IMG/VR virus record: IMGVR_UViG_3300021963_005655
Span: 1 to 41,145 of that record
Origin: a virus
Direction: 5' to 3' (one strand)
DNA: 41,145 nt
This document shows, piece after piece, positions 11,641-23,667 of the stretch. The notes beneath the pieces are model-generated. The model was not told the origin of the DNA. It ran no database searches and saw only the letters and a list, made by a program, of their open reading frames with translations. The stretch's first letter is position 1. Every line of letters starts with the position of its first letter. Position numbers and translations under genes: made by a program.

Positions 11641-13107
11641 ATGAAATTAGGAGTTTGTGTACCATATAGAAATAGAGAAGAACATTTAAAAAGATTTGTT
11701 CCCCATATTCATAAATTTTTAAATGATATGGGAATTGAACATGCTATATATTTAGGACATCAAAATGATGATGAACTATTTAATAGAGGATTGATGAAAA
11801 ATGTTGCAGCAATAGCTGCATTTGAAGATGGTTGTGATTACATTGTTTGGCATGATATTGATATGGTGCCGGAAGATGATAGTTGTGATTATTCATTTCC
11901 AACCGATAATCCACAACATATAGCAGTTCGTATCTCACAATCCGACTATATGTTAAAGTATGAAGAATACTTTGGTGGAGCAGTTTTATTCTCAAAAGAA
12001 CAGGCATATAAAGCCAATGGATACTCCAATGACTATTGGGATTGGGGAATGGAAGATGATGATTTATTTTGGAGATGTGTATTGGAAGGGATGGCTGATA
12101 AACAAATTCATCAAAAAATTGAAAATCAATCATTTGGACAATTTAATGGAGTAAATTCTTTATTAGAAATTTTACCATCCAACAACCTAAGAAACGCCAT
12201 ATCGGATTCACATACTATTTCGGTATTGGTTAAGGCTGACCAACAAATAGAAAAAGTTCCTATTTGGTTAATCGGTGATACAAAAAGACAATTTGTGGAA
12301 TATCCGATTTTCAGAAAGCCCGGTTATGATTATGGGTTATCATTTAATAATAGTAGAGCATATACTGCTATGTTGTGGGATTCACGTAAGAATCACATTT
12401 ATCAATGGATGAAACGATATGAAAACCAATGGAGTTGGGTAACTATGGTATTAGATGCAAAGAATAAGAAGATGCATCTTTATATGAATGGAAATGAAAG
12501 TGATGCTAGAAATGGAACAGGCACATCATCACCAATGCATTTTGATTTTCCGTTAAAACGTTATGGAGTAGAACCATTCTTTGTTGGACACACCCCATCG
12601 CCTGGAACACAAACACACGCTAAGTGGTTCAAAGGTGATATAGCTAAAATAAAAGTTTGGAATAAAGCATTTAATAACGATGAAGTTAGAAGTAGTATTT
12701 TTGAAAACGCTTTTGAAAAAACTGCGATATTAAATTTGAACTTCGATGGGATGGCTAAAGATGATTCATATTTAAAACATAGATTAGTTAATCAAAATGT
12801 AGAAATAGAATCGGATAATATAGAAGTTCCATCCACAATACTCCCATATAGAAGAGATGGTAAATTTGAATGCTTACCACATCAAACCGAAGGTATAATT
12901 GAAGAAGGTGGAATTCAGAAATGGGCAAAGGGAGAAACTACTGCTGCAAATGAAAGAAGATATGTTTTAAATATGCAGCAAGGTAGTATCAACCATAAAA
13001 CAGATGGATTATCTAATGCTAAAGAAAGATATGAATTTATCAGTAAAGAGCAAATAATGGATATTCCAAACGCATTTATGGTAAATGTAAAAACCATTAG
13101 AAAATGA
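11641..13107 (+). CDS. Beta-1,4-galactosyltransferase-like/LamG fusion, copy 3
   Basis: This 488-residue protein is the third paralogue, one base after copy 2. The GT7-like domain is intact: LGVCVPYRNREEHL at the start, FNRGLMKNV (47-55), HDIDMVP (71-77), YFGGAVLF (110-117) and NGYSNDYWDWGMEDDDL (126-142). The following LamG-like region (about 155-370) includes QFNGVNSLLEI, SWVTMVLDAKNKKMHLYMNG and WFKGDIAKIKVW. The C-terminal part has PYRRDGKFECL and GLSNAKERYEF, like the tail of copy 2. The tandem array suggests gene duplication followed by change of acceptor or donor preference. It precedes the lipoyl-domain gene by a four-base overlap. Confidence 0.85.
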   Translation: MKLGVCVPYRNREEHLKRFVPHIHKFLNDMGIEHAIYLGHQNDDELFNRGLMKNVAAIAAFEDGCDYIVWHDIDMVPEDDSCDYSFPTDNPQHIAVRISQSDYMLKYEEYFGGAVLFSKEQAYKANGYSNDYWDWGMEDDDLFWRCVLEGMADKQIHQKIENQSFGQFNGVNSLLEILPSNNLRNAISDSHTISVLVKADQQIEKVPIWLIGDTKRQFVEYPIFRKPGYDYGLSFNNSRAYTAMLWDSRKNHIYQWMKRYENQWSWVTMVLDAKNKKMHLYMNGNESDARNGTGTSSPMHFDFPLKRYGVEPFFVGHTPSPGTQTHAKWFKGDIAKIKVWNKAFNNDEVRSSIFENAFEKTAILNLNFDGMAKDDSYLKHRLVNQNVEIESDNIEVPSTILPYRRDGKFECLPHQTEGIIEEGGIQKWAKGETTAANERRYVLNMQQGSINHKTDGLSNAKERYEFISKEQIMDIPNAFMVNVKTIRK

Positions 13108-13346
13108 GTGATATAATAATGCCTAGAATGACCGATACGATGGAAACGGGTGTATTGGTTAATTGGTTTGTAAAAGAGGGAGATTGTGTTAAATCGGGTG
13201 ATATAATAGCAGAGATTGAAACGGATAAAGCCATAATGGATTTAGAAGTGTGGGAGAGTGGATGTATAACTCATATAGAAATAAAAGAAGGACAAAGAAT
13301 ACCAATTAATAGTATAATAGCTAAAATAGAAAATAATGTCAGATAA
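13104..13346 (+). CDS. Stand-alone lipoyl/biotinyl domain protein (80 aa)
   Basis: This 80-residue protein is one complete lipoyl domain. It starts with DIIMPRMTDTMETGVLVNWF, has VKEGDCVKSGD, and carries the modification hairpin EIETDKAIMDLE with Lys42 in the DKA turn. The second half has WESGCITHI and IPINSIIAKIE. The overall match is to the E2 component of pyruvate or acetoin dehydrogenases, where a lipoyl group on this lysine carries an acyl unit. There is no E1/E3-binding or acyltransferase domain. It overlaps the radical SAM gene by 11 bases. The same gene block encodes short E1-alpha-like and E1-beta-like proteins. Biotin attachment is less likely because the lysine is in DKA, not MKM. 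Confidence 0.9.
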   Translation: MSDIIMPRMTDTMETGVLVNWFVKEGDCVKSGDIIAEIETDKAIMDLEVWESGCITHIEIKEGQRIPINSIIAKIENNVR

Positions 13347-14760
13347 ATTCAAAGTTGATTTAGAACAACAAAATCCTTTGTATGTGAATACAAAGAAAAC
13401 ACTAGATGCGGTAGGACCGGGTATGTGTTTAGCAAAATGGACGCAAGTAACGCTATCTTTACAGGTAGGACACAATCACTCATGTCACCATCCTAGAACA
13501 CACGCAATTTCTCCGCAAGAGATTGCACGAAACCCATCGGCACTTCACAATACGAGATACAAAAAACTTCGTAGAAAAGAAATGTTGAATGGAGCTAGAC
13601 CTACTGAATGTGATTATTGTTGGGGAGTAGAAGATAATTCTAGCATATTTTCTGATAGAGTTTTCAAATCTTCAGAAAGTTGGTCTTTACCATTTATGGA
13701 GCAAATCAAAAATTCGGATTGGAGAGATGATTTTAATCCTAAGTATGTTGAAGTAGCATTTAGTAATGCTTGTAATTTTAAATGTTCTTATTGTGGACCT
13801 GCATATAGTTCTCAATGGGTTGAGGAAATTGAAAAATACGGCGCCTATCCAACAACGGATAGATTTAATGATACTCAATATTTAATTGAGGAACACAAAA
13901 TGCCAATTGCTCAAAAAGATTATAATCCATATACGGAAGCCTTTTGGAAATGGTGGCCAGATTTATACAAAGATTTACACACCTTTAGAATTACGGGTGG
14001 TGAACCATTATTGGCAAAAGATACTTGGAAAGTGTTAGATTATATTATAGACCAACCAAATCCAAATAAACAACTTAAATTAGCATTTAATTCAAACTTA
14101 GGTGCACCTGATGCATTAATTGATAAGTTTATTGAAAAACTTAAAAGAATCGAAGATGAGGAAAGAGCAAGTGAAATTGTAATTTTCACATCTTGTGATA
14201 CTTGGGGAGAGCAAGCTGATTATATTAGAACGGGTATGGAATTTAATAGATTTTGGGATAACGTTAATAAAATTTTAACCAAATGTCCAAGAGTTATTAT
14301 TACTTTTATGTCAACATATAATGCATTGAGTTTATTCAATTATAATAAGTTGATTAAAGAGGTTTATAACTTAAAAGATATCTATGGTAGCTACGATAGA
14401 TATTGGAATTCGGCAGTATTTTTAGATTCATCATATTTAAGATATCCACAACATCAGACTGTTCAAATTCTTCCATATGATTTTTCTAAAAAATTATTAG
14501 AGCAAACTAAGTTAATTACATATTATGCTATTCCTGTATTTGAACCAAAGTATATTGGATTTTCTGATATTGAAGTTCAGAAATTAAAAAGAATATATGA
14601 TTGGATGATATCACCACAAGATGGTAGCAAACAACTTAGAAATCGTTATAATTTCCACAAATACTTTACAGAACACGATAAAAGAAGAGGAACTAATTTT
14701 GTGAAAACATTTCCTGAATTGGAAGAATTTTATAATTTTTGTGGAACTATTCAAATTTAA
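13336..14760 (+). CDS. Radical SAM protein with N-terminal Cys cluster (twitch/SPASM-like)
   Basis: This 474-residue protein carries the radical SAM motif CNFKCSYC, with C146, C150 and C153 binding the 4Fe-4S cluster, followed by RITGGEPLL, the GGE SAM-binding motif. A second set of cysteines lies before the core (C31, C50, C92, C95; CDYCW), suggesting an auxiliary cluster of the twitch or SPASM type at an unusual N-terminal place. Such enzymes generate a 5'-deoxyadenosyl radical for difficult C-H chemistry on peptides, sugars or other molecules. It overlaps the lipoyl gene and is followed by a free LamG protein. Substrate unknown; lipoate-type sulfur insertion is not indicated. Confidence 0.85.
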   Translation: MSDKFKVDLEQQNPLYVNTKKTLDAVGPGMCLAKWTQVTLSLQVGHNHSCHHPRTHAISPQEIARNPSALHNTRYKKLRRKEMLNGARPTECDYCWGVEDNSSIFSDRVFKSSESWSLPFMEQIKNSDWRDDFNPKYVEVAFSNACNFKCSYCGPAYSSQWVEEIEKYGAYPTTDRFNDTQYLIEEHKMPIAQKDYNPYTEAFWKWWPDLYKDLHTFRITGGEPLLAKDTWKVLDYIIDQPNPNKQLKLAFNSNLGAPDALIDKFIEKLKRIEDEERASEIVIFTSCDTWGEQADYIRTGMEFNRFWDNVNKILTKCPRVIITFMSTYNALSLFNYNKLIKEVYNLKDIYGSYDRYWNSAVFLDSSYLRYPQHQTVQILPYDFSKKLLEQTKLITYYAIPVFEPKYIGFSDIEVQKLKRIYDWMISPQDGSKQLRNRYNFHKYFTEHDKRRGTNFVKTFPELEEFYNFCGTIQI

Positions 14761-14765
14761 AAAAT

Positions 14766-15533
14766 ATGAGTTTATTAATAAAAAAAGAAGAACCTTGGGT
14801 TATTTTACCCGAAAGTAGATATGATATTACCGATAGGAAGATAGATACCTTTATGGATGATGATTTCTCATTATATCTTAAAGTTAAAATATTTCCCGAA
14901 ATGATGGAATATAATGAGGAAGGATTTGCATTTGCTAGAAGTGGTAAACATTCTGGTTTATCTTTTTATAAAGTAAAGGATAATGATGGTAATGATATTG
15001 TTACATTAATGTGGACATATTGGTTTATGGATGATAGTTTTGTACAATTTCATTATAATATAGAAGCATCGGAAATAAATGAATTTATAGAAGTAGTGGT
15101 TTTAAATGATGATAGTAATTCTAAAACATTTACACTATATGTAAACTCTAAATTAGTAGATACTAAAGAATATGTTGAGAAAGAGAAGCAATCTTATAAA
15201 TTCGGAGAAATGGGAGGTGGAGGATTCTACCAATTTGGAAATGGAAATTTTCAGGTACCAGATATAGCAATGCATTTAGAATGTGAATTTGATATGTGTT
15301 TTTTAATTAAAGGATTACGTTCTTTAAATGAAATGCAAACGATATCAAATACATATGAAGAAAATTTAATTGAGTTCTTAGAAGAAATTAAAGTATTCAA
15401 AGAATCTACTCCTTATAAAAAAGATTTAGCATTCTTTTTGGATTTTAAACAACAAAATAGATACAAAGTATGGGAGTTAACGCATAATGGAAACTATTTA
15501 TCAAAAGCAACTTTAGAAAACATTTATTTTTAA
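14766..15533 (+). CDS. Free-standing LamG/concanavalin-like protein
   Basis: I place the start at ATG 14766, just after the radical SAM stop; the frame could open from TTG at 14739 but that would overlap the previous gene without need. The 255-residue product is mostly one beta-sandwich resembling the LamG parts of the three galactosyltransferase fusions: DDDFSLYLKVKIF, HSGLSFYKVKD, FIEVVVLNDDSNSKTFTLYV and NSKLVDTKEY, then a C-terminal helix and DFKQQNRYKVWEL. There is no catalytic motif or signal peptide. It probably binds carbohydrate or mediates contact with the glycosyltransferases or virion. Its stop overlaps the next start (TAATG). Confidence 0.72.
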   Translation: MSLLIKKEEPWVILPESRYDITDRKIDTFMDDDFSLYLKVKIFPEMMEYNEEGFAFARSGKHSGLSFYKVKDNDGNDIVTLMWTYWFMDDSFVQFHYNIEASEINEFIEVVVLNDDSNSKTFTLYVNSKLVDTKEYVEKEKQSYKFGEMGGGGFYQFGNGNFQVPDIAMHLECEFDMCFLIKGLRSLNEMQTISNTYEENLIEFLEEIKVFKESTPYKKDLAFFLDFKQQNRYKVWELTHNGNYLSKATLENIYF

Positions 15534-16498
15534 TGAAAATATTAATCACAGGCGGCGCAGGCTATTTGGGTTCGGTTATTGTAGATAAAATGTTGAAAGC
15601 CGGACATGAAATCGTAGTATTAGACAAATTATTATTTAATCAAACTTCTCTATTACAATATACATCGAATCCAAAATTTAAATTCATTTATGGAGATGTT
15701 CGTAATGTAACGGAATTGGAAAGATTATGTAAAGAAGCTGATGTAATTATTCCATTGGCAGCAATCGTAGGATTTCCTGCTTGTGCGGCTGACCCTAAAT
15801 TGGCAAAAGAAATTAATTTTGACCAAATCTTTAATATTGTAAGATTTGCTAAAGATAAAAAGATTTTATATCCCAATACAAATAGTGGATATGGGATTGG
15901 TGTAGGCCAAACGGAATGTACGGAGGAATCACCACTTACTCCTATTTCAGTTTACGGACAAACTAAATGCGATGCTGAAAACTTTTTAAGAGCAAACACA
16001 TCAGCAATTACATTTAGATTAGCAACTGTATTTGGAGTATCACCAAGAATGAGAACCGATTTATTGGTAAATGATTTTACTTATAAAGCAATAACCGATA
16101 AATACATAGTTGTATTTGAAAAGAATTTTAAAAGAAACTTTATTCACGTTGAAGATGTTGCATCGGCATTTCTTTTTATGTTAGAAAACTACGATACTTA
16201 CAAAGGTGAAGTGTTTAATGTAGGATTAAGTTCGGCAAATCTTTCAAAGCAAGAATTGTTAGAAAAGATACAATCCCATGTAAAGGATTTTGCGGTATCA
16301 TACAACGATTTTTATGAGGACCCCGATAAAAGAGATTACATTGTATCGAACGCTAAAATAGAAGCGACTGGTTGGATGCCTGAATGGGATTTAGATAGAG
16401 GTATAAAACAATTGATTCAAGGATATCAAATGATAGTTCCAAAAATGGGAGCAGAATTTAGAAACGGATTTCCATTAGGTTACGCAAATCAAACATAA
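15533..16498 (+). CDS. NAD-dependent nucleotide-sugar epimerase/dehydratase (extended SDR)
   Basis: This 321-residue protein has the NAD(P)-binding loop GGAGYLG (residues 7-13) at the N-terminus, DVRN and the LAAIVGFPAC segment, and the catalytic pair Y141-x3-K145 (YGQTK). NFIHVEDVASAF and EVFNVG are typical of nucleotide-sugar epimerases and dehydratases. Length is normal for the family. It acts in the cytoplasm on an NDP-sugar, by 4-epimerisation, 4,6-dehydration or 4-reduction; sequence alone does not decide which. The adjacent RmlC-like gene suggests a deoxysugar route with a 4-keto intermediate. Both neighbours are tightly packed, so it is part of the same operon. Confidence 0.87.
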   Translation: MKILITGGAGYLGSVIVDKMLKAGHEIVVLDKLLFNQTSLLQYTSNPKFKFIYGDVRNVTELERLCKEADVIIPLAAIVGFPACAADPKLAKEINFDQIFNIVRFAKDKKILYPNTNSGYGIGVGQTECTEESPLTPISVYGQTKCDAENFLRANTSAITFRLATVFGVSPRMRTDLLVNDFTYKAITDKYIVVFEKNFKRNFIHVEDVASAFLFMLENYDTYKGEVFNVGLSSANLSKQELLEKIQSHVKDFAVSYNDFYEDPDKRDYIVSNAKIEATGWMPEWDLDRGIKQLIQGYQMIVPKMGAEFRNGFPLGYANQT

Positions 16499-16499
16499 T

Positions 16500-17045
16500 A
16501 TGAATAATAAATGGGATGAGTTTATAGAAACTCCATCAAAAATATTTGGTTACCAAGTGCCCGTATTTACTCCATCAATTTATAGAGAATATAGAGGCGA
16601 AATATTTACTACATTTCATAGTGAAGAACATCCCGTAATGCGACATATTCATTATGATAAATCAGAAATATCAATTCACGGAAGATTTTCGAAATCGTAT
16701 AAAGGAGTATTAAGGGGATTGCATTATGATAACAAAACGTGGAAATTAGTTCAAGCGGCAGTTGGCGATATCTATTTAGTTGTATTAGATATGCGAAAAG
16801 ATTCACCAACTTTCGGTGATTGGGAATCGTTTATGATAACCGAAAAAGATAGAAACCAAGTATTAGTTCCACCCGGCTTTGCTAATGGACATTATGCATT
16901 AACGGATTGTATGTTCCATTATAATTTATTTTATAAAGATGGATATGTAGATGCGGATATGCAAGGTGTAATTAAATGGAACGACCCGGAATATCAAATG
17001 GAATGGCCAACTAATAATCCTACATTACAAAAAAGAGACAGATGA
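16500..17045 (+). CDS. RmlC-like dTDP-4-keto-6-deoxysugar 3,5-epimerase
   Basis: This 181-residue protein has the length and cupin pattern of the RmlC family: GVLRGLHYD (69-77) with the catalytic His75, VGDIYLVVLDMRKDSPTFG (88-106), VPPGFANGH (123-131), and FHYNLFYKDGY with the expected active-site tyrosine. In this family the enzyme epimerises C3 and/or C5 of a 4-keto-6-deoxy NDP-sugar. The preceding SDR and later SDR genes could make and then reduce that intermediate. The 3' end overlaps the E1-alpha-like gene by four bases (ATGA). Whether it epimerises one or both centres is not visible. No separate RmlA or RmlB can be assigned with certainty in this window. Confidence 0.88.
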   Translation: MNNKWDEFIETPSKIFGYQVPVFTPSIYREYRGEIFTTFHSEEHPVMRHIHYDKSEISIHGRFSKSYKGVLRGLHYDNKTWKLVQAAVGDIYLVVLDMRKDSPTFGDWESFMITEKDRNQVLVPPGFANGHYALTDCMFHYNLFYKDGYVDADMQGVIKWNDPEYQMEWPTNNPTLQKRDR

Positions 17046-17677
17046 TACAAAATTTAGAAAACTACAATAAAGTAAGAGAAGTAGATGAACTATTTACTTC
17101 GGAAAATTTGATTGATTTTGAAAACCTAATAGTAAAACATTGGGAAGAGGGTAAAATTAGAGGACCTATCCACTTATCAAATGGAAATGAAGAGCAATTG
17201 ATTGAAGTGTTCAAAAGAATATCTAAGGAAGATTGGATATTCAGTACTTGGCGTTCACATTACCACGCATTATTAAAAGGTATTTCACCTAAGTGGATTG
17301 AAGATGAAATTCTTAAAGGAAAATCAATTACCCTTTGTAATATGGATGAAAAGTTTTATTCATCCGCTATTGTGGGTGGTACACTTTCAATCGCATTAGG
17401 TGTAGCAATGGGAATTAAAGAAAGAGGAAGCGATGAAAAGGTTTGGTGTTTTATTGGTGATATGAGTTTTGAAAGTGGTATATTTTATGAAGTTCATAAA
17501 TATGCTAGAAACTTTGATTTACCGCTTTACTTTGTAGTTGAAGATAACGATGTTTCAACTTATACACCAACTGAAGCAACTTGGAATAAGAAAAGAGAAA
17601 TACCTTCGGATGTAATTTACTATAAATACAAATCAAAATTTCCACATTACGGAACGGGTAAGTGGATAGCATTTTAA
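17042..17677 (+). CDS. Short TPP-dependent E1-alpha-like protein
   Basis: This 211-residue protein resembles the first two-thirds of the alpha subunit of 2-oxoacid or acetoin dehydrogenases: GPIHLSNGNE (41-50), STWRSHYHALLKG (68-80), SAIVGGTLSIALGVAMGIK (108-126), then the TPP/metal motif as GDMSFESG (139-146) ending EDND (167-170). The canonical GDG is GDM, and the alpha C-terminal helical region (usually 100 or more residues) is absent. The metal ligands (Asp140, Asn169) are retained. The missing beta half is encoded by a separate short gene at 23125, and a lipoyl domain at 13104. It may form an alpha/beta heteromer that binds TPP. The 2-oxoacid or sugar substrate is unknown. Confidence 0.83.
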   Translation: MIQNLENYNKVREVDELFTSENLIDFENLIVKHWEEGKIRGPIHLSNGNEEQLIEVFKRISKEDWIFSTWRSHYHALLKGISPKWIEDEILKGKSITLCNMDEKFYSSAIVGGTLSIALGVAMGIKERGSDEKVWCFIGDMSFESGIFYEVHKYARNFDLPLYFVVEDNDVSTYTPTEATWNKKREIPSDVIYYKYKSKFPHYGTGKWIAF

Positions 17678-17678
17678 T

Positions 17679-19037
17679 ATGTTAAAATTTATATACGATA
17701 GATACGATTTTAAAAGAAGAAAACCATATCCAAATTTATTTGATAAGGCAATAATTTCGTACTACAATCAACATTCGGATGAATATAATTATGATACAAA
17801 TAATCAAAAGTTTGTATTGGCTACGTGCCATTCTGAATTATATGGTAACGTAATTGCTAAATCTAAAAATTATATAATAGCACAAGATGGTGTACCAAAT
17901 AAAGATGAAAAATATTTCTATCCAATAGAAATTTTTGGCAATCATAGAAGATTATTGGATAATAATGATTATATAAATTCCAATAATGTAAAATACTCAA
18001 CATCGTTCAGAACCGGTGTATCTCAAAAGATAATCGACTTAGCAAAAAAAGATAGAATCAAATTTATTATAAATTATTCACACGAACCTTTTTCTGATAA
18101 ATGGTTTATGGATGAGTTTGAAACTATGATTATTGATATGGGATTGAATATGGATATGTTCTATTTTTTTGTTGGAACATCTAACCTATATGAATTATTG
18201 CCCGATTTAAAAAAATATAATTTTTATTTTGAAAATGCAATTGTAACGAGTACGGCGATTAAAGTAAAAAATTTAAAATCTCAACCAAATTTTACATTAG
18301 GATATAAAACCGAATGGATTGATGAATCTGAAATAAATAATATACGAAGCAAACATTTTGTTTGTTTGAATAGAAATTCGCAAAAACCTTTTAGATATAC
18401 ATTTGGTTGCTTTTTGGAATCCAAAAATATGTGGGATACGATTTATGCGAGTTTCCTAAAGAAATCAGATAATAGAGCAATTTATTTAACAGGTGTAGAA
18501 GATTTTGATTTATCTATAAAAAACGCCGAAGAATCATTTATGAATAAACTTCCAATAGAAGTTGATACTCATAATTCGGAAGATAAAGAGTCATTTGAAG
18601 TGGCTAGAGCTTTTAAAAAGGAAATATATTTGGATTCTTACACATACATTGTAACAGAAACCAATTTTGAAAATGATATTTTTTTAACTGAAAAAATATG
18701 CAACCCAATGGCTGTATTACAACCATTTATTATTTTTGGAGCATACGGATATTTAAAATATCTACAATCGTTAGGATTCAAAACATTCGATGGATTTATA
18801 GATGAAAGATATGATACTATTGAAAACAATGAAGAGCGATATTTTAAAATATGTTCCGAAATAGAAAGAATTTCAAATTTACCAATTAATGAACTACACA
18901 ATTGGTATAGTTCTATAAACGATATATTAGTACACAATCGAAATCATTTATTAGGATTTGCAGATAAAATAATGTTTAAAGATAATTTAGAAAAAATAGA
19001 AAAAAAATGGATAAAGCCTATAATAAAGTTCTTATAA
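17679..19037 (+). CDS. Putative glycosyltransferase (GT10/exostosin-like C-terminus), paralogue A
   Basis: I do not firmly recognise this 452-residue protein. The C-terminal third has a block shared with the gene at 26066: FLTEKICNPMAVLQPFIIFG followed by YLKYLQSLGFKTFDGFIDE. A TEK...P...G(Q)PF/V..G pattern is seen in the donor-binding part of fucosyltransferase (GT10) and exostosin-like GT-B enzymes. The middle has KHFVCLNRNSQKPFRY, also like GT10-type proteins. The N-terminal part is unassigned. The setting among sugar enzymes supports a glycosyltransferase. The gene's end overlaps the next SDR by 31 bases. A deoxysugar such as a fucose-like unit is a possible donor, but this is a guess. 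Confidence 0.62.
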   Translation: MLKFIYDRYDFKRRKPYPNLFDKAIISYYNQHSDEYNYDTNNQKFVLATCHSELYGNVIAKSKNYIIAQDGVPNKDEKYFYPIEIFGNHRRLLDNNDYINSNNVKYSTSFRTGVSQKIIDLAKKDRIKFIINYSHEPFSDKWFMDEFETMIIDMGLNMDMFYFFVGTSNLYELLPDLKKYNFYFENAIVTSTAIKVKNLKSQPNFTLGYKTEWIDESEINNIRSKHFVCLNRNSQKPFRYTFGCFLESKNMWDTIYASFLKKSDNRAIYLTGVEDFDLSIKNAEESFMNKLPIEVDTHNSEDKESFEVARAFKKEIYLDSYTYIVTETNFENDIFLTEKICNPMAVLQPFIIFGAYGYLKYLQSLGFKTFDGFIDERYDTIENNEERYFKICSEIERISNLPINELHNWYSSINDILVHNRNHLLGFADKIMFKDNLEKIEKKWIKPIIKFL

Positions 19038-19951
19038 CCGGATGTAGCGGTTTAGTTGGAATACATTTAGTAAAAAAATGTTTAGAAAAGGGATATGATG
19101 TGATTGGTGTAGATTTGAAGTATTCAGATAATTTACCAAAATCAGATAAATTTACTTTTTACGAATTAGATTTAACTAATGAAGAAAATGTAAGAAATTT
19201 GTTCTTCTATGAAATGCCGGATATAGTATTAAACTGTTTTGGTATCAAAGGTTCTCCATTGAGAGCAAAAACTAAACCAGTGGATTTTTTATATCCATCT
19301 TTCAAAATCAATACGGAAATTATACACCAATGTGCTAAGCACAATATTTGGTTAGTATTTGTAAGTTCGGTTGGAGTATATGCACCTGCTGAAAAATTTG
19401 TAGAAGATAGTGTATGGAAAACGTTACCATCTGAAGCAGATTGGTTTCCATCGTGGAGTAAACGAATGGGTGAGATTCTGTTAGAATCATATAAAGTTCA
19501 GTATAACTACGATAAATGGTCTATAATTCGACCTGCAAATATTTTTGGAGAATATGATGATTTTAGTGGTAATGGGACTGTAATTGGAACTCAATGTAAA
19601 AAAGTATTTGAAGCAACAAATGAAATTGAAGCATGGGGTGATGGTACACCTATTAGAGATTTCGTATATGCTGGCGATGTGGCTGATGCTATTTTAGATT
19701 TATACGAACGTAAATTGCATACTACAATTAACTTCGGAGCGGGTGAAGAAATTACAATCAAATCTATGATTGAGCAACTGATAGAAATTAGTGGAAAAAA
19801 TATATCTATAAAATGGGATACATCTAAACCAAACGGAGATATGCGTAGGCAGATGGATACTACAAAGCAAACTGAAATTGGATTATTACCAAAATTAGGT
19901 TTTAAAGAAGCATTGAGAAAAACATACAATCATTACATTAATGGAAAATAA
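19007..19951 (+). CDS. Extended SDR, NDP-sugar-modifying type, atypical active site
   Basis: This 314-residue protein has a clear NAD(P) loop, GCSGLVG (residues 12-18), DLTNEE, a VSSVGVY strand with candidate catalytic Ser, GDGTPIRDFVYAGDVADAI, and NFGAGEEITIKSM, all typical of nucleotide-sugar epimerases or reductases. The usual YxxxK pair is altered: the lysine is Lys152 (PSWSKRMGE), but the tyrosine position (148) is proline. It could be a binding protein, use another base, or have a shifted tyrosine. It starts inside the previous gene and ends inside the SGNH-like gene. It probably acts on the same NDP-sugar as its neighbours. Confidence 0.8.
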   Translation: MDKAYNKVLITGCSGLVGIHLVKKCLEKGYDVIGVDLKYSDNLPKSDKFTFYELDLTNEENVRNLFFYEMPDIVLNCFGIKGSPLRAKTKPVDFLYPSFKINTEIIHQCAKHNIWLVFVSSVGVYAPAEKFVEDSVWKTLPSEADWFPSWSKRMGEILLESYKVQYNYDKWSIIRPANIFGEYDDFSGNGTVIGTQCKKVFEATNEIEAWGDGTPIRDFVYAGDVADAILDLYERKLHTTINFGAGEEITIKSMIEQLIEISGKNISIKWDTSKPNGDMRRQMDTTKQTEIGLLPKLGFKEALRKTYNHYINGK

Positions 19952-21017
19952 GTTACACATTGTTACATCGGGTTGCTCATTCACTCACAATTATCGGATG
20001 AACATATCTTTGCCAGAAATGGAAGATAGATGGAAAAACGACCCAAAGCAAGACTACACTTGGTTTCATTGGTTATGGAGAAAGTTAGGTAAAGATGCCG
20101 AATTTCATAACTATGGAACTATTACAAATGATAATAAAACCATCTGCCGTTCTATATTTTATAAAGTAAACGATTTGATTTTTAATCAGAAGGTTAATCC
20201 AAAAGATATTATTGTAATCGCACAATGGACTACATTGACTCGTAATTCATTTTTCATTTCACCATCTAAATACAATGAGAATCCAAAAAACGATTTAACA
20301 AAATTGTGGTTGGAAAAAAATGATTCACATCCTCACACAAATGATTTTATTAAATTTGGAGAAAAAGAACATTGTTATCAGCATGGATATTACTATTTAA
20401 CAGGTGGTTATAACTTAACAAACCATCCGGGTAAAGTAGATGAATTTTGTGCACACTATTTAGATAGTGTAATGTCCAAAGAAGAAAGATATATTGATTG
20501 GTTTGATTCTTTAATTGGATTATTAAGTTGGTTAGAAAAAGTTGGAGTTACTAAATTCCATTCATTCAATATGAATAATAACTTTTCTAAACCGGCATTA
20601 GAAGCAAGAACTCCACCATTTCATATTTGGGATAATCCTAAGTTTGGAACTCCATATCAACAAATGATAGAACAAAAAAAAGTAGAAAACACTTGGGGAA
20701 GTGGTTTAATGATATATGATAACCCGTATGTAAAAATGTATTCTGATAGAATAGATTTTGATAAATATTTTTGGTTTTTTGAAGAAAATTCCGTACATTC
20801 GTATGGAGGAATTATAGAATGGAGTATTAGAAACTTTGACTATAATTTATCTGATGGTAATTATGATTTACCAAAAGTATTGTGGAGAGAAATGAATGGA
20901 TTAGATATTGAAGGACAAAAACAATATTTAGAAAAAAGTTGGTATGGGCATACATCATCTATACTAACTCATAAATTTGTAAATGATGTAGTTTTAAATT
21001 GGGAAATTTTTAAATAA
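19941..21017 (+). CDS. SGNH/GDSL-like hydrolase, paralogue A
   Basis: This 358-residue protein starts with HIVTSGCSFTHNY; the GCSFT block (11-15) with Ser13 matches the nucleophile block I of SGNH hydrolases, where GDS or GCS is followed by T. The segment NYGTITNDNKTICRSIFYK, then IVIAQWTTLTR, fits blocks for the oxyanion Asn and Gly. Near the end, SWYGHTSSILTHKFVN may supply the catalytic His. A close relative lies at 24981 with the same order of blocks. In glycan clusters, such proteins remove or transfer acyl (often acetyl) groups on sugars. No signal peptide is visible, so action is likely cytoplasmic or on the assembling virion. Confidence 0.75.
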   Translation: MENKLHIVTSGCSFTHNYRMNISLPEMEDRWKNDPKQDYTWFHWLWRKLGKDAEFHNYGTITNDNKTICRSIFYKVNDLIFNQKVNPKDIIVIAQWTTLTRNSFFISPSKYNENPKNDLTKLWLEKNDSHPHTNDFIKFGEKEHCYQHGYYYLTGGYNLTNHPGKVDEFCAHYLDSVMSKEERYIDWFDSLIGLLSWLEKVGVTKFHSFNMNNNFSKPALEARTPPFHIWDNPKFGTPYQQMIEQKKVENTWGSGLMIYDNPYVKMYSDRIDFDKYFWFFEENSVHSYGGIIEWSIRNFDYNLSDGNYDLPKVLWREMNGLDIEGQKQYLEKSWYGHTSSILTHKFVNDVVLNWEIFK

Positions 21018-21021
21018 AAAT

Positions 21022-22014
21022 ATGAAAAAAACAGACAAAATCTTAGTTACGGGTGCAAGTGGATTTATTGGTTCACGATTATTAAAAATGTTGTATGAAA
21101 GTGGTTACACTAATTTAAGAGCAACTACTTTTGCAAGAGATTTGAGAAACGATTTCGAAGGAACTCAATTTGTAGAGCACATTAAAGGCGATTTACAAAC
21201 CGCTGAATTTTGTGAAAAGATTGTACAAAATGTAGATGTGGTATTTCATTGTGCAGCTAATACATCAAATGCATTGGATACAAAAGTAAATCCATTGATA
21301 CACGTTACAGCAAACGTTGAAATGAATGTAAATTTAATGGAGCAAGCTTGGAAAAACTCCGTTAGAAAATTTATGTACATTTCATCCAATACAGTATATC
21401 CAAACATTGGTAGTGAATATTGTACGGAAGATATTGAAGTACAATCGCCAAATATATATCCTGCATATAAAGCAGTTGGTAATATGAAACGATATGGCGA
21501 AACACTTTGCGACTTCTTATCAAATCATATTCACAATCCAATGCAATGTGTAATCATTAGACCTTCAAACGCATTCGGACCAAATGATAAGTATGATTAC
21601 GAAAAGTGTCACGTTACCCCCGCAAATATCCGTAAAGTAGCAGATGGATTAAATCCAATCCCGGTATGGGGTGATGGAACTGAAGTTAGAGATGTGATTC
21701 ACGTTGATGATATGGTTAGTGGATTTATATGTGTTGCAGAAAATGTAGATACATATGATGTTTATAATGTATGCTATGGAAGTGGGTACACTGTTAATGA
21801 AGTTTTGGATACTATTAAATCGATTGAAAATAACGATAACCCAATTGATTATGTAAGTAATAAAGCTCCTATGATTCCCGTTAGATTACTATCTAATAAG
21901 AGATTGAAGCAACTGGGTTGGAAACCTAAATATGATTTGAGAAGTGGATTAGAAGATGCGTTAAAATGGTATAAAGAGCATAAAAACGAATTCAATCCGA
22001 ATTCAAAACCTTAA
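21022..22014 (+). CDS. NAD-dependent NDP-sugar epimerase/reductase (extended SDR)
   Basis: This 330-residue protein has the loop GASGFIG (about residues 10-16), VVFHCAANTSN, YISSNTVYPN with the Ser region, and the pair Y146-x3-K150 in YPAYKAVGNMK, a spacing reminiscent of GDP-fucose synthase (YxxAKxxG). Later motifs are VIIRPSNAFGPNDKYD, VWGDGTEVRDVIHVDDMV and YNVCYGSGYTVNE. It is probably a nucleotide-sugar 4-reductase/epimerase or 4-epimerase. It shares a TAATG junction with the second radical SAM gene. This copy retains the catalytic pair, in contrast to the SDR at 19007. Confidence 0.85.
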   Translation: MKKTDKILVTGASGFIGSRLLKMLYESGYTNLRATTFARDLRNDFEGTQFVEHIKGDLQTAEFCEKIVQNVDVVFHCAANTSNALDTKVNPLIHVTANVEMNVNLMEQAWKNSVRKFMYISSNTVYPNIGSEYCTEDIEVQSPNIYPAYKAVGNMKRYGETLCDFLSNHIHNPMQCVIIRPSNAFGPNDKYDYEKCHVTPANIRKVADGLNPIPVWGDGTEVRDVIHVDDMVSGFICVAENVDTYDVYNVCYGSGYTVNEVLDTIKSIENNDNPIDYVSNKAPMIPVRLLSNKRLKQLGWKPKYDLRSGLEDALKWYKEHKNEFNPNSKP

Positions 22015-23123
22015 TGGATAACAAAGAGGAAATACTTAAAAAATACGTGTGTGAGATGCCATTTATGTACAGCGATGTACAATGGTCATCTCAATTCGTA
22101 TGCTGTCCTTCTTGGGCACCACAAAGTATTAGAGTAGATGGGAATGGAAAAGAAAGTTGGTTGCCAGTAAATGAAACCGATGATGTAATGAGAAATTGGA
22201 CATCCACTCAAGCTCAAAATATCCGTAAATCGGTATTGGATGGTACTTACAAATATTGTGACCACAAAATATGCCCGAGATTAAATGAATTAATAAACAC
22301 AGGCAGAAAGCCATATCTATTTAAAGAAATAGATGAGTTCAGAGAGATTTATAATATTCATACCGAAGAAGATATCGTAAATTATAATACACCACCTGAA
22401 GAGATTTTATTTGGATTTGATAGAAGTTGTAATTTAAGATGCCCATCGTGTAGAGTATCATTGATACCAAATGATGATTTAGAATCTCCACAACATAAAG
22501 CAAAGTTGCACTTATTAAAATCCATCGAAGATAATTTTGCAAGTAATTTAAAAAGAATTATGGTAACCGGAAGTGGTGACCCATTCTACTCAAAAATTTA
22601 TAGAGATTATTTGATAAACTTTGATATAGCAAAATATCCTAATTTAGAACAATTACAAATAATCACAAATGGTAATTTGTTGGATGAAAAATTATGGAAT
22701 CAAATGAAAGCTAGTCCATACATTAAAACAATAGAAATTAGTATTGATGCTGGAACAAAGGATACCTATGAAAATAAGACTAGATTAAATGGTAATTGGG
22801 ATAGATTGATAACTAATTTAAAATTCTTATCAAAGCAAAATACAATAGATGAATTTATATGCTCTATGGTTGTTAGTAAATATAATTACAAAGAAATGTA
22901 TATGTTCTACGAAACTATAACGGATATATTTAAGGATTCTACATTTGATTTAGTAATAAATTACAGACAATTAGTTGATTGGGGAACATATTCGGCACAA
23001 ACATTAAAAGAATTGCAAGTATTTAATGAGGAACACGAATTGTTTAATGAATTTTTAGAAGAAGTAAATAAAATAGATAATAAGAAATTTGTAAATCACA
23101 ATTTTCATCATTTAAAAAAATAA
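22014..23123 (+). CDS. Radical SAM protein, second copy
   Basis: This 369-residue protein has CNLRCPSC with C139, C143 and C146 for the 4Fe-4S cluster, preceded by FGFDRS and followed by VTGSGDPFYS (the GGE-like strand carries GSGD). IEISIDAGTKDTYE is the family's SAM-binding strand, as in MoaA/PqqE-type enzymes. The N-terminus holds C13, C30, C31, C82 and C87, which could bind a second cluster, as in the other radical SAM gene at 13336. The core is closer to the SPASM/MoaA group and differs clearly from the first copy. It lies directly before the E1-beta-like gene (one base gap). Substrate unknown. Confidence 0.84.
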   Translation: MDNKEEILKKYVCEMPFMYSDVQWSSQFVCCPSWAPQSIRVDGNGKESWLPVNETDDVMRNWTSTQAQNIRKSVLDGTYKYCDHKICPRLNELINTGRKPYLFKEIDEFREIYNIHTEEDIVNYNTPPEEILFGFDRSCNLRCPSCRVSLIPNDDLESPQHKAKLHLLKSIEDNFASNLKRIMVTGSGDPFYSKIYRDYLINFDIAKYPNLEQLQIITNGNLLDEKLWNQMKASPYIKTIEISIDAGTKDTYENKTRLNGNWDRLITNLKFLSKQNTIDEFICSMVVSKYNYKEMYMFYETITDIFKDSTFDLVINYRQLVDWGTYSAQTLKELQVFNEEHELFNEFLEEVNKIDNKKFVNHNFHHLKK

Positions 23124-23124
23124 T

Positions 23125-23667
23125 ATGAGTACACCACAATATTCTCCATATAAAGATGCATTAACAAATGCTATGACGGAATTATCTAAATTAGATGATA
23201 CAATCTTTATTGGACAACAAATAGTTTATGCAGGAAACCCTATGAGTACAACTTTGGGAGAAGTTCCAAAAGAAAAAATGATTGAAGTACCAGTTATGGA
23301 AGAAACTCAAATGGGAATGAGTTTAGGGTTGGCTATGAGTGGTAAACGAGTTATCACATTCTACCCTCGTTGGGATTTTATTATATCAGCAGCTAATCAG
23401 ATGATTAATCATTTGGATAAATTTGAAATAATGACGGGTAAAAAACTTAATGTAATTATTAGGTTGGGTAAAGGTTCTGATAAACCATTAGACCCCGGCC
23501 ATCAACACAAAGGAAATTATATTGAAGAATTTAAATCGTTGTGTAAGAACATAGAATTTCACGATTTAAAAACTCCATCTGATATATATGTATCATATGA
23601 ATATGCTATGAAAGAAGGTGGTATTCATTGTTTAGTTGAATATCCGGAACTTTATTATCAAAATTAA
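23125..23667 (+). CDS. Short TPP-dependent E1-beta-like protein (pyrimidine-binding domain only)
   Basis: This 180-residue protein matches the N-terminal pyrimidine-binding domain of E1-beta/transketolase-family subunits: KDALTNAMTELSKLDD at the start, EVPVMEETQMGMSLGLAMSGK (54-74) with Glu59 at the site that activates the TPP aminopyrimidine ring, FYPRWDFIISAANQMINH, and RLGKGSDKPLDPGHQHKGN, which is nearly canonical. The C-terminal transketolase domain (about 130 residues in normal E1-beta) is absent; the protein ends soon after the segment where it would begin. Together with the short alpha subunit at 17042, it could complete a minimal TPP site. The two genes are 5.4 kb apart but in the same run. 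Confidence 0.86.
   Translation: MSTPQYSPYKDALTNAMTELSKLDDTIFIGQQIVYAGNPMSTTLGEVPKEKMIEVPVMEETQMGMSLGLAMSGKRVITFYPRWDFIISAANQMINHLDKFEIMTGKKLNVIIRLGKGSDKPLDPGHQHKGNYIEEFKSLCKNIEFHDLKTPSDIYVSYEYAMKEGGIHCLVEYPELYYQN

What the first reader, a model, noticed from the sequence alone, without database searches (positions are those of the whole stretch)
13104..23667. Phage-encoded minimal E1-alpha / E1-beta / lipoyl-domain set inside a glycan gene block
Three short proteins correspond to pieces of a 2-oxoacid dehydrogenase: a lipoyl domain (Lys42 in ETDKA, 13104), an E1-alpha-like TPP-binding protein (17042) and an E1-beta-like pyrimidine-binding domain (23125, Glu59). Their truncations fit together: alpha lacks its C-terminal part, beta lacks its C-terminal domain, and lipoyl lacks the E2 core. 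No E2 acyltransferase or E3 is present, but two SGNH-type proteins, three SDRs and two radical SAM proteins are. This suggests a new TPP/lipoyl-dependent way to put an acyl or branched carbon unit on a sugar, rather than energy metabolism. Domain assignment is from motifs; the pathway idea is inference.
Basis: partly seen in the sequence, partly recalled or inferred. Interest (0 to 1): 0.88.

Follow-up and report, generated by a model that had tools for sequence, protein, structure and literature searches.

The report
Phage branched-sugar gene set, lipoyl-free
A water-dwelling phage carries a small two-part, vitamin-B1-dependent enzyme inside a sugar-making gene set shared with many related phages and marine bacteria; it probably joins a two-carbon branch to an unusual activated sugar, and the lipoyl protein noticed nearby is not a regular part of it.

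Summary
The three gene calls are correct. The E1-alpha/E1-beta pair is real: 49 of 49 relatives' records with the alpha gene also carry the beta gene, cyanophages and some cells encode the two fused, and the catalytic residues are kept. The short lengths are a stable family trait, not truncation. The lipoyl domain is not part of this unit. It is absent from the same 49 records and sits in a gene junction that is closed in 28 of 31 relatives; only one other contig has it. No E2, E3 or lipoate ligase was found. The conserved unit is instead SDR1, an RmlC-like epimerase, E1-alpha, SDR2, SDR3 and E1-beta. SDR1 is a close homolog of Campylobacter Cj1427 (GDP-heptose 4-dehydrogenase); the epimerase is closest to GDP-heptose 3,5-epimerases. 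Minimal pairs in SAR11, Chloroflexi and other cells lie beside GDP-heptose genes. Best reading: a minimal ThDP carboligase that adds a two-carbon branch to a GDP-4-keto sugar, like AviB1/AviB2 and Plm8/Plm9 in antibiotic sugars, without lipoate. The reaction is inferred; the module, its conservation and its partners are shown. 'TPP/lipoyl acyl transfer' is not supported; 'branched carbon on a sugar' is plausible.

The parts
15533..16498 (+). SDR1: NAD-dependent sugar-nucleotide dehydrogenase, close homolog of Campylobacter Cj1427 (GDP-heptose C4-dehydrogenase); core gene
   Evidence: PDB 6vo6, E 8.5e-106, 357 bits over residues 2-307; in 52 of 52 alpha loci
16500..17045 (+). RmlC-like sugar 3,5-epimerase, GDP-heptose type; core gene
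   Evidence: dTDP_sugar_isom 1.4e-32; eight GDP-heptose-type chains (8e-36 to 3e-34) rank above dTDP RmlC (2e-23); 51 of 52 loci
17042..17677 (+). minimal E1-alpha: ThDP diphosphate-binding subunit; core gene, overlaps the epimerase gene by 4 nt
   Evidence: E1_dh 7.5e-15; PHROG 34187 N-terminal half; model pLDDT 91.1, 1.9 A rmsd to human PDH E1-alpha
19007..19951 (+). SDR2: GDP-fucose-synthase-like reductase/epimerase; core gene
   Evidence: Epimerase 8.4e-40; GDPFucSynFcl 2.2e-40, below its cut-off; 49 of 52 loci
21022..22014 (+). SDR3: GDP-fucose-synthase-like reductase/epimerase; core gene
   Evidence: Epimerase 1.5e-43; GDPFucSynFcl 2.3e-40, below its cut-off; SDR match in 52 of 52 loci, some distant
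23125..23667 (+). minimal E1-beta: ThDP pyrimidine-binding subunit with catalytic Glu59; core gene
   Evidence: Transket_pyr 5.1e-7; PHROG 34187 C-terminal half; present in 49 of 49 alpha-bearing records
13104..13346 (+). free-standing lipoyl domain (Lys42 in ETDKA); accessory, not part of the conserved module
   Evidence: Biotin_lipoyl 3.5e-19; only one relative among viral contigs; absent from 49 of 49 alpha records
13336..14760 (+). radical SAM 1 (twitch-domain type); frequent neighbour, variable
   Evidence: NF033640 1.2e-104; 46 of 52 loci, identity down to 25%
22014..23123 (+). radical SAM 2; variable neighbour of beta
   Evidence: Radical_SAM 2.2e-10; 11 of 52 loci

Best explanation
The genes encode a nucleotide-sugar cassette built round a minimal two-subunit ThDP enzyme. 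Proposed order: SDR1 oxidises C4 of a GDP-sugar (most likely GDP-heptose supplied by the host) to a 4-ketone; the RmlC-like enzyme epimerises C3/C5; E1-alpha/E1-beta decarboxylates pyruvate (or a similar 2-oxoacid) on ThDP and adds the two-carbon unit directly to the keto-sugar, making a C4-branched sugar; SDR2 and SDR3 reduce the remaining ketone(s); the phage's glycosyltransferases attach the product to a phage or host glycan. No lipoate takes part; the 13104 lipoyl protein is a separate accessory of a few phages. Shown: gene identities, alpha/beta partnership, conservation of the six-gene set, active-site residues, fold, absence of lipoyl in relatives. Inferred: the donor, the acceptor, the C-C bond formation and the glycan target.
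For: Alpha and beta co-occur in 49/49 records and are fused in cyanophages and ten cellular loci. ThDP/Mg and catalytic residues are kept. Fold is confident. 42 of 52 alpha loci hold SDR1, rmlC, SDR2, SDR3 and beta within 10 kb; L020 has the six genes alone and contiguous. SDR1 is Cj1427-like and the epimerase is of GDP-heptose type; in Campylobacter these act in sequence on a 4-keto GDP-heptose (PMC10680097). PDH-E1-like pairs attach a two-carbon chain from pyruvate to keto-sugars in paulomycin, proposed likewise in avilamycin (PMC4802897, PMC4753412). Lipoyl, E2 and lipoate ligase are absent from relatives.
Against: No substrate is known by experiment. The pair is equally linked to heptose-precursor genes in cells, which a transketolase-like role would also explain. 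The fused model matches transketolase better than other proteins over both domains. SDR2 and SDR3 have no close solved relative, so their role as product reductases is a guess. GDP-heptose genes are absent from the phages.
Confidence: 0.5

Rival explanations
1. E1-alpha/beta is a transketolase-like enzyme at the front of heptose synthesis: it moves a two-carbon ketol unit to make sedoheptulose-7-phosphate or a similar ketose phosphate, the substrate of GmhA.
For: Minimal pairs in cells lie beside HddA (18 of 51 loci), GmhA (12), GmhB and HldE genes. The fused model's best full-length match is transketolase.
Against: Sequence is closest to PDH E1, not transketolase. The phages carry the keto-sugar genes with the pair but none of the heptose-precursor genes. 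Transketolase genes are present separately in several of these clusters.
Confidence: 0.17
2. E1-alpha/beta is another kind of lipoyl-free carboligase or decarboxylase, for instance lengthening a sugar chain or making a small aldehyde or acyloin building block used in the glycan.
For: In other lineages the pair sits with a zinc alcohol dehydrogenase and an HldE-type kinase, or with radical SAM genes, instead of SDR1/rmlC, so the acceptor may differ between lineages.
Against: In the phage lineage the partner set is constant and offers a 4-keto sugar as the obvious acceptor.
Confidence: 0.2
3. One reading: alpha, beta and the lipoyl protein form a TPP/lipoyl-dependent acyl-transfer system acting on a sugar.
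For: All three genes lie in the same 10.6-kb block on one strand; the lipoyl gene is under purifying selection (dN 0.06, dS 0.61) and has the modifiable Lys42.
Against: Lipoyl absent from 49 of 49 alpha-bearing records; it fills a junction that is closed in 28 of 31 relatives; no E2, E3 or lipoate ligase; lipoyl hits in cells lie beside full-length E1 pairs, never beside minimal ones.
Confidence: 0.05
4. Ordinary energy metabolism: alpha/beta are cut-down subunits of a pyruvate dehydrogenase used to redirect host carbon flux.
For: The nearest solved structures are PDH E1 subunits.
Against: Sugar-nucleotide context conserved across phages and cells, loss of the C-terminal regions, a family-specific conserved C-terminal Pro-His (His202 in 90 of 90 sequences), no E2 or E3.
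Confidence: 0.03

Closest known systems
PDH-E1-like alpha/beta pairs of branched octose synthesis: AviB1/AviB2 (avilamycin), Plm8/Plm9 (paulomycin)
   Same: A lone E1 alpha/beta pair in a deoxysugar cluster, working (or proposed to work) on a 4-keto sugar without E2/E3
   Different: Here the subunits are about 210 and 180 aa, carried by phages, beside GDP-heptose-type enzymes; the reaction is untested. Direct sequence comparison with these proteins was not done
Campylobacter jejuni GDP-heptose modification pathway (Cj1427, Cj1430, Cj1428)
   Same: Cj1427-like C4-dehydrogenase, GDP-heptose-type C3/C5-epimerase and GDP-fucose-synthase-like SDRs
   Different: An E1 alpha/beta pair is added; GDP-heptose synthesis genes are missing from the phage
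PHROG 34187 / 'transketolase central region-containing protein' of cyanophages S-SM2 and P-TIM68
   Same: Same alpha and beta domains, in one 403-408 aa chain, inside a glycan gene block
   Different: Fused rather than split; neighbours are a zinc alcohol dehydrogenase and ADP-heptose-type genes rather than SDR1/rmlC
Pyruvate dehydrogenase E1 (2-oxoacid dehydrogenase complexes)
   Same: Fold, ThDP/Mg ligands, catalytic Glu and His
   Different: C-terminal regions of both subunits missing, no E2/E3, no lipoyl partner in relatives
YerE (yersiniose)
   Same: Known ThDP enzyme adding a two-carbon branch at C4 of an O-antigen sugar
   Different: Single-chain flavoprotein, different ThDP family (from the literature, PMC4753412; family assignment from general knowledge)

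Membership tests
2-oxoacid dehydrogenase complex | E1 alpha and beta with ThDP/Mg site and catalytic Glu | tested here: met
2-oxoacid dehydrogenase complex | Complete E1 subunits (full E1_dh; Transketolase_C on beta) | tested here: not met
   E1_dh covered 7-172 of 300; no Transketolase_C; sizes stable in relatives
2-oxoacid dehydrogenase complex | E2 acyltransferase core and E3 | tested here: not met
   PF00198 in 0 of 34 records; PF02852 absent from the window record
2-oxoacid dehydrogenase complex | Lipoyl domain working with E1 | tested here: not met
   Present in the window, but absent from 49 of 49 alpha-bearing relatives
E1-type branched-sugar carboligase (AviB1/AviB2, Plm8/Plm9 kind) | Lone E1 alpha/beta pair inside a sugar-nucleotide cluster | tested here: met
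E1-type branched-sugar carboligase (AviB1/AviB2, Plm8/Plm9 kind) | An enzyme that makes the 4-keto acceptor in the same cluster | tested here: met
   Cj1427-like SDR1 in 52 of 52 loci; activity inferred from homology
E1-type branched-sugar carboligase (AviB1/AviB2, Plm8/Plm9 kind) | Two-carbon transfer from pyruvate to a keto-sugar | not testable with these tools
   Needs enzymology
E1-type branched-sugar carboligase (AviB1/AviB2, Plm8/Plm9 kind) | Common descent with AviB1/AviB2 or Plm8/Plm9 | not tested
   Those sequences were not at hand
Campylobacter-type GDP-heptose modification | C4-dehydrogenase of Cj1427 type | tested here: met
   E 8.5e-106, alignment over 306 residues
Campylobacter-type GDP-heptose modification | RmlC-like C3/C5-epimerase of GDP-heptose type | tested here: met
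   Best matches are GDP-heptose-type chains
Campylobacter-type GDP-heptose modification | C4-reductase of GDP-fucose-synthase kind | tested here: inconclusive
   SDR2 and SDR3 match GDPFucSynFcl best but below its cut-off; no close PDB relative
Campylobacter-type GDP-heptose modification | Genes making GDP-heptose (GmhA, HddA, GmhB, HddC) | tested here: not met
   No HddA, GmhA or HddC/GmhB match in 162 phage stretches, window included, though present beside the pair in cells; the phage would need the host's

The most novel reading that the evidence does not exclude
A very small E1-type ThDP carboligase, carried by phages and by SAR11-like bacteria, adds a two-carbon branch to GDP-4-keto-heptose and so makes a class of C4-branched heptoses not yet described in any glycan.
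Probability: 0.33. Interest if true: 0.78.

Novelty: new variant of a known kind. Interest (0 to 1): 0.6.

Why it matters
It gives a testable function to a phage protein family of unknown role (PHROG 34187) and to a large, apparently unstudied family of two-domain ThDP enzymes in SAR11, SAR86, Chloroflexi, Prochlorococcus, CPR and DPANN genomes. If right, branched-chain sugars, so far known from some O-antigens and antibiotics, would be made by abundant aquatic phages and their hosts, with a clean six-gene set to express in vitro.

Tried and rejected
Lipoyl as third subunit: rejected by co-occurrence, junction comparison and the lack of E2, E3 and ligase. Decayed PDH fragments: rejected because sizes and active-site residues are stable across over 100 relatives and dN/dS is low. 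dTDP-rhamnose pathway: the RmlC-like gene is closer to GDP-heptose epimerases. Campylobacter phage 'transketolases' seen as weak structural hits were not found by sequence. Neighbour genes in cells (4-keto makers versus heptose-precursor genes) did not separate the two sugar models. Papers describing phage-encoded E1 pairs in glycan blocks: none found.
Full report
WHAT WAS CHECKED. The window is an IMG/VR virus record with T4-like terminase and portal genes; its terminase is nearest to Flavobacterium phages of the immuto group, 54.6% identity. All three ORFs of the finding exist and carry the stated domains. The alpha product aligns to the first half of E1_dh only, the beta product to the pyrimidine domain only, and the record holds no Transketolase_C, E2 core or E3 dimerisation domain.

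ALPHA AND BETA ARE ONE ENZYME. One PHROG family of unknown function (34187, 405 aa) covers both halves in order. It corresponds to the 'transketolase central region-containing protein' of cyanophages S-SM2 and P-TIM68, and ten cellular loci have the same fusion. In viral contigs 143 alpha and 125 beta relatives were found. Of 49 whole records picked for alpha, 49 also encode beta. The alignments keep Asp140 and Asn169 of alpha (the Mg/ThDP ligands by alignment with human PDH E1; 85 and 88 of 90 sequences) and Glu59 and His128 of beta; the assignment of these positions to roles rests on known PDH E1 biochemistry. An invariant His202 in a C-terminal 'PH' motif (90 of 90 sequences) lies past the part that aligns to PDH E1. 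The stable length of about 210 and 180 aa is also a family trait. So the proteins are not broken PDH subunits. The fused homolog L206 folds with mean pLDDT 91.7 and pTM 0.93 and matches transketolase over both domains (TMq 0.60-0.70 but rmsd 9-10 A); the window alpha folds with pLDDT 91.1 and matches human PDH E1-alpha at 1.9 A rmsd.

LIPOYL IS NOT PART OF IT. Biotin_lipoyl is absent from all 49 records with alpha; the one record that has it (L161) was picked for the lipoyl gene, and its contig ends before the alpha gene. A close-relative scan of the viral contigs found only L161. In 28 of 31 relatives the two genes that flank the lipoyl gene in the window lie within -11 to +24 nt of each other; in L161 and in the window the gap is 228 nt and holds the lipoyl gene. 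In cells, lipoyl hits occur beside longer E1 pairs (five of the loci L218-L235) and never beside the minimal pairs. No lipoate ligase or E2 was found in 34 records. The lipoyl gene itself looks functional: dN 0.06 against dS 0.61 and Lys42 in ETDKA. Its role is open.

THE CONSERVED MODULE. Among 52 alpha loci with 10 kb on each side, SDR1 is found in 52, the RmlC-like gene in 51, an SDR3 match in 52 (some only distantly similar), SDR2 in 49 and beta in 46 (whole-record search shows the others lie further away); 42 loci have all five partners. Radical SAM 2 and the SGNH candidates vary much more. L020 has the six genes contiguous and alone: SDR1-rmlC-E1a-SDR2-SDR3-E1b. In the window the rmlC and alpha genes overlap by 4 nt. 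In L033 rmlC, alpha and beta are adjacent and beta is fused to a C-terminal region resembling the neighbouring 26066/17679 family.

WHICH SUGAR. SDR1 is a strong homolog of PDB 6vo6 (E 8.5e-106), which I identify from knowledge as Campylobacter Cj1427; [quoted passage not shown] The window epimerase ranks eight chains of the GDP-heptose epimerase group (8e-36 to 3e-34; some deposited under dTDP names) above all plain dTDP-RmlC chains (2e-23 and weaker). The phages carry none of HddA, GmhA or HddC/GmhB, so the host would have to supply GDP-heptose. Minimal pairs in cells (SAR11, SAR86, SAR116, Chloroflexi, DPANN, CPR, Prochlorococcus) often lie next to HddA, GmhA, GMD, HddC/GmhB or HldE genes; 17 loci of longer or weaker E1 relatives have none of these. 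In the alpha tree the T4-like phage sequences form one group, which also holds three MAG contigs, L165-L167 (probably misbinned phage DNA); its neighbours are the SAR11-type cellular pairs. Support for the phage group is only 0.68.

MECHANISM. E1 enzymes decarboxylate a 2-oxoacid on ThDP; without a lipoyl acceptor the activated two-carbon unit can be added to a carbonyl. That is the role given to PDH-E1-like pairs in paulomycin (Plm8/Plm9 attach a two-carbon chain from pyruvate to deoxysugars, PMC4802897) and proposed in avilamycin (AviB1/AviB2; PMC4753412); YerE does the same in yersiniose of O-antigens. The phage module has the keto-sugar maker, the epimerase, the carboligase and two possible reductases. 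I therefore favour a two-carbon branch on a GDP-4-keto sugar. The step itself is inference. The main rival is a transketolase-like role in making the heptose precursor; the phage gene set (back-end genes only) argues against it, the fold comparison does not exclude it. Glycan gene blocks beside tail-fibre genes, probably altering the host O-chain, are already known in pelagimyophages (PMC7029224).

VERDICT. It is a new variant of a known kind (E1-type branched-sugar carboligases), notable for its small size, its phage host and its link to GDP-heptose-type enzymes.

Noticed in passing
window:13104-13346; L161:10001-10240: A free-standing, apparently functional lipoyl domain inserted between a glycosyltransferase and radical SAM 1 in two phage contigs only, overlapping both neighbours; its partner is unknown.
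   Followed up: partly
L180:8252-11150, also L181, L182, L194: SAR11 contigs with two E1 pairs in tandem, a longer one (287/307 aa in L180) followed by the minimal one; the minimal alpha has lost Asp140 in these.
   Followed up: no
L033:8084-9826: E1-beta fused to a C-terminal region resembling the 26066/17679 proteins, with rmlC and E1-alpha directly upstream.
   Followed up: partly
L190-L193, L195, L197, L198, L202, L209, L213, L223: In DPANN archaea and some bacteria the minimal pair is often flanked by SPASM-like radical SAM genes instead of SDR1/rmlC.
   Followed up: no
window:8420-13107: Three paralogous glycosyltransferases, two of them tested and showing a GT7-type domain joined to a lectin-like LamG domain.
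   Followed up: no
window:27520-31920: A 1466-aa ORF that begins like a nucleotidyltransferase (SGRFQPFHKGH) and holds a KTDG motif like that of nucleic-acid ligases near its end; possibly a polyprotein or multi-enzyme.
   Followed up: no
L165, L166, L167: Contigs labelled as bacterial MAGs (Pelagibacterales, Saccharibacteria, Flavobacteriales) that group with the phages and share their gene order; probably misbinned phage DNA.
   Followed up: partly
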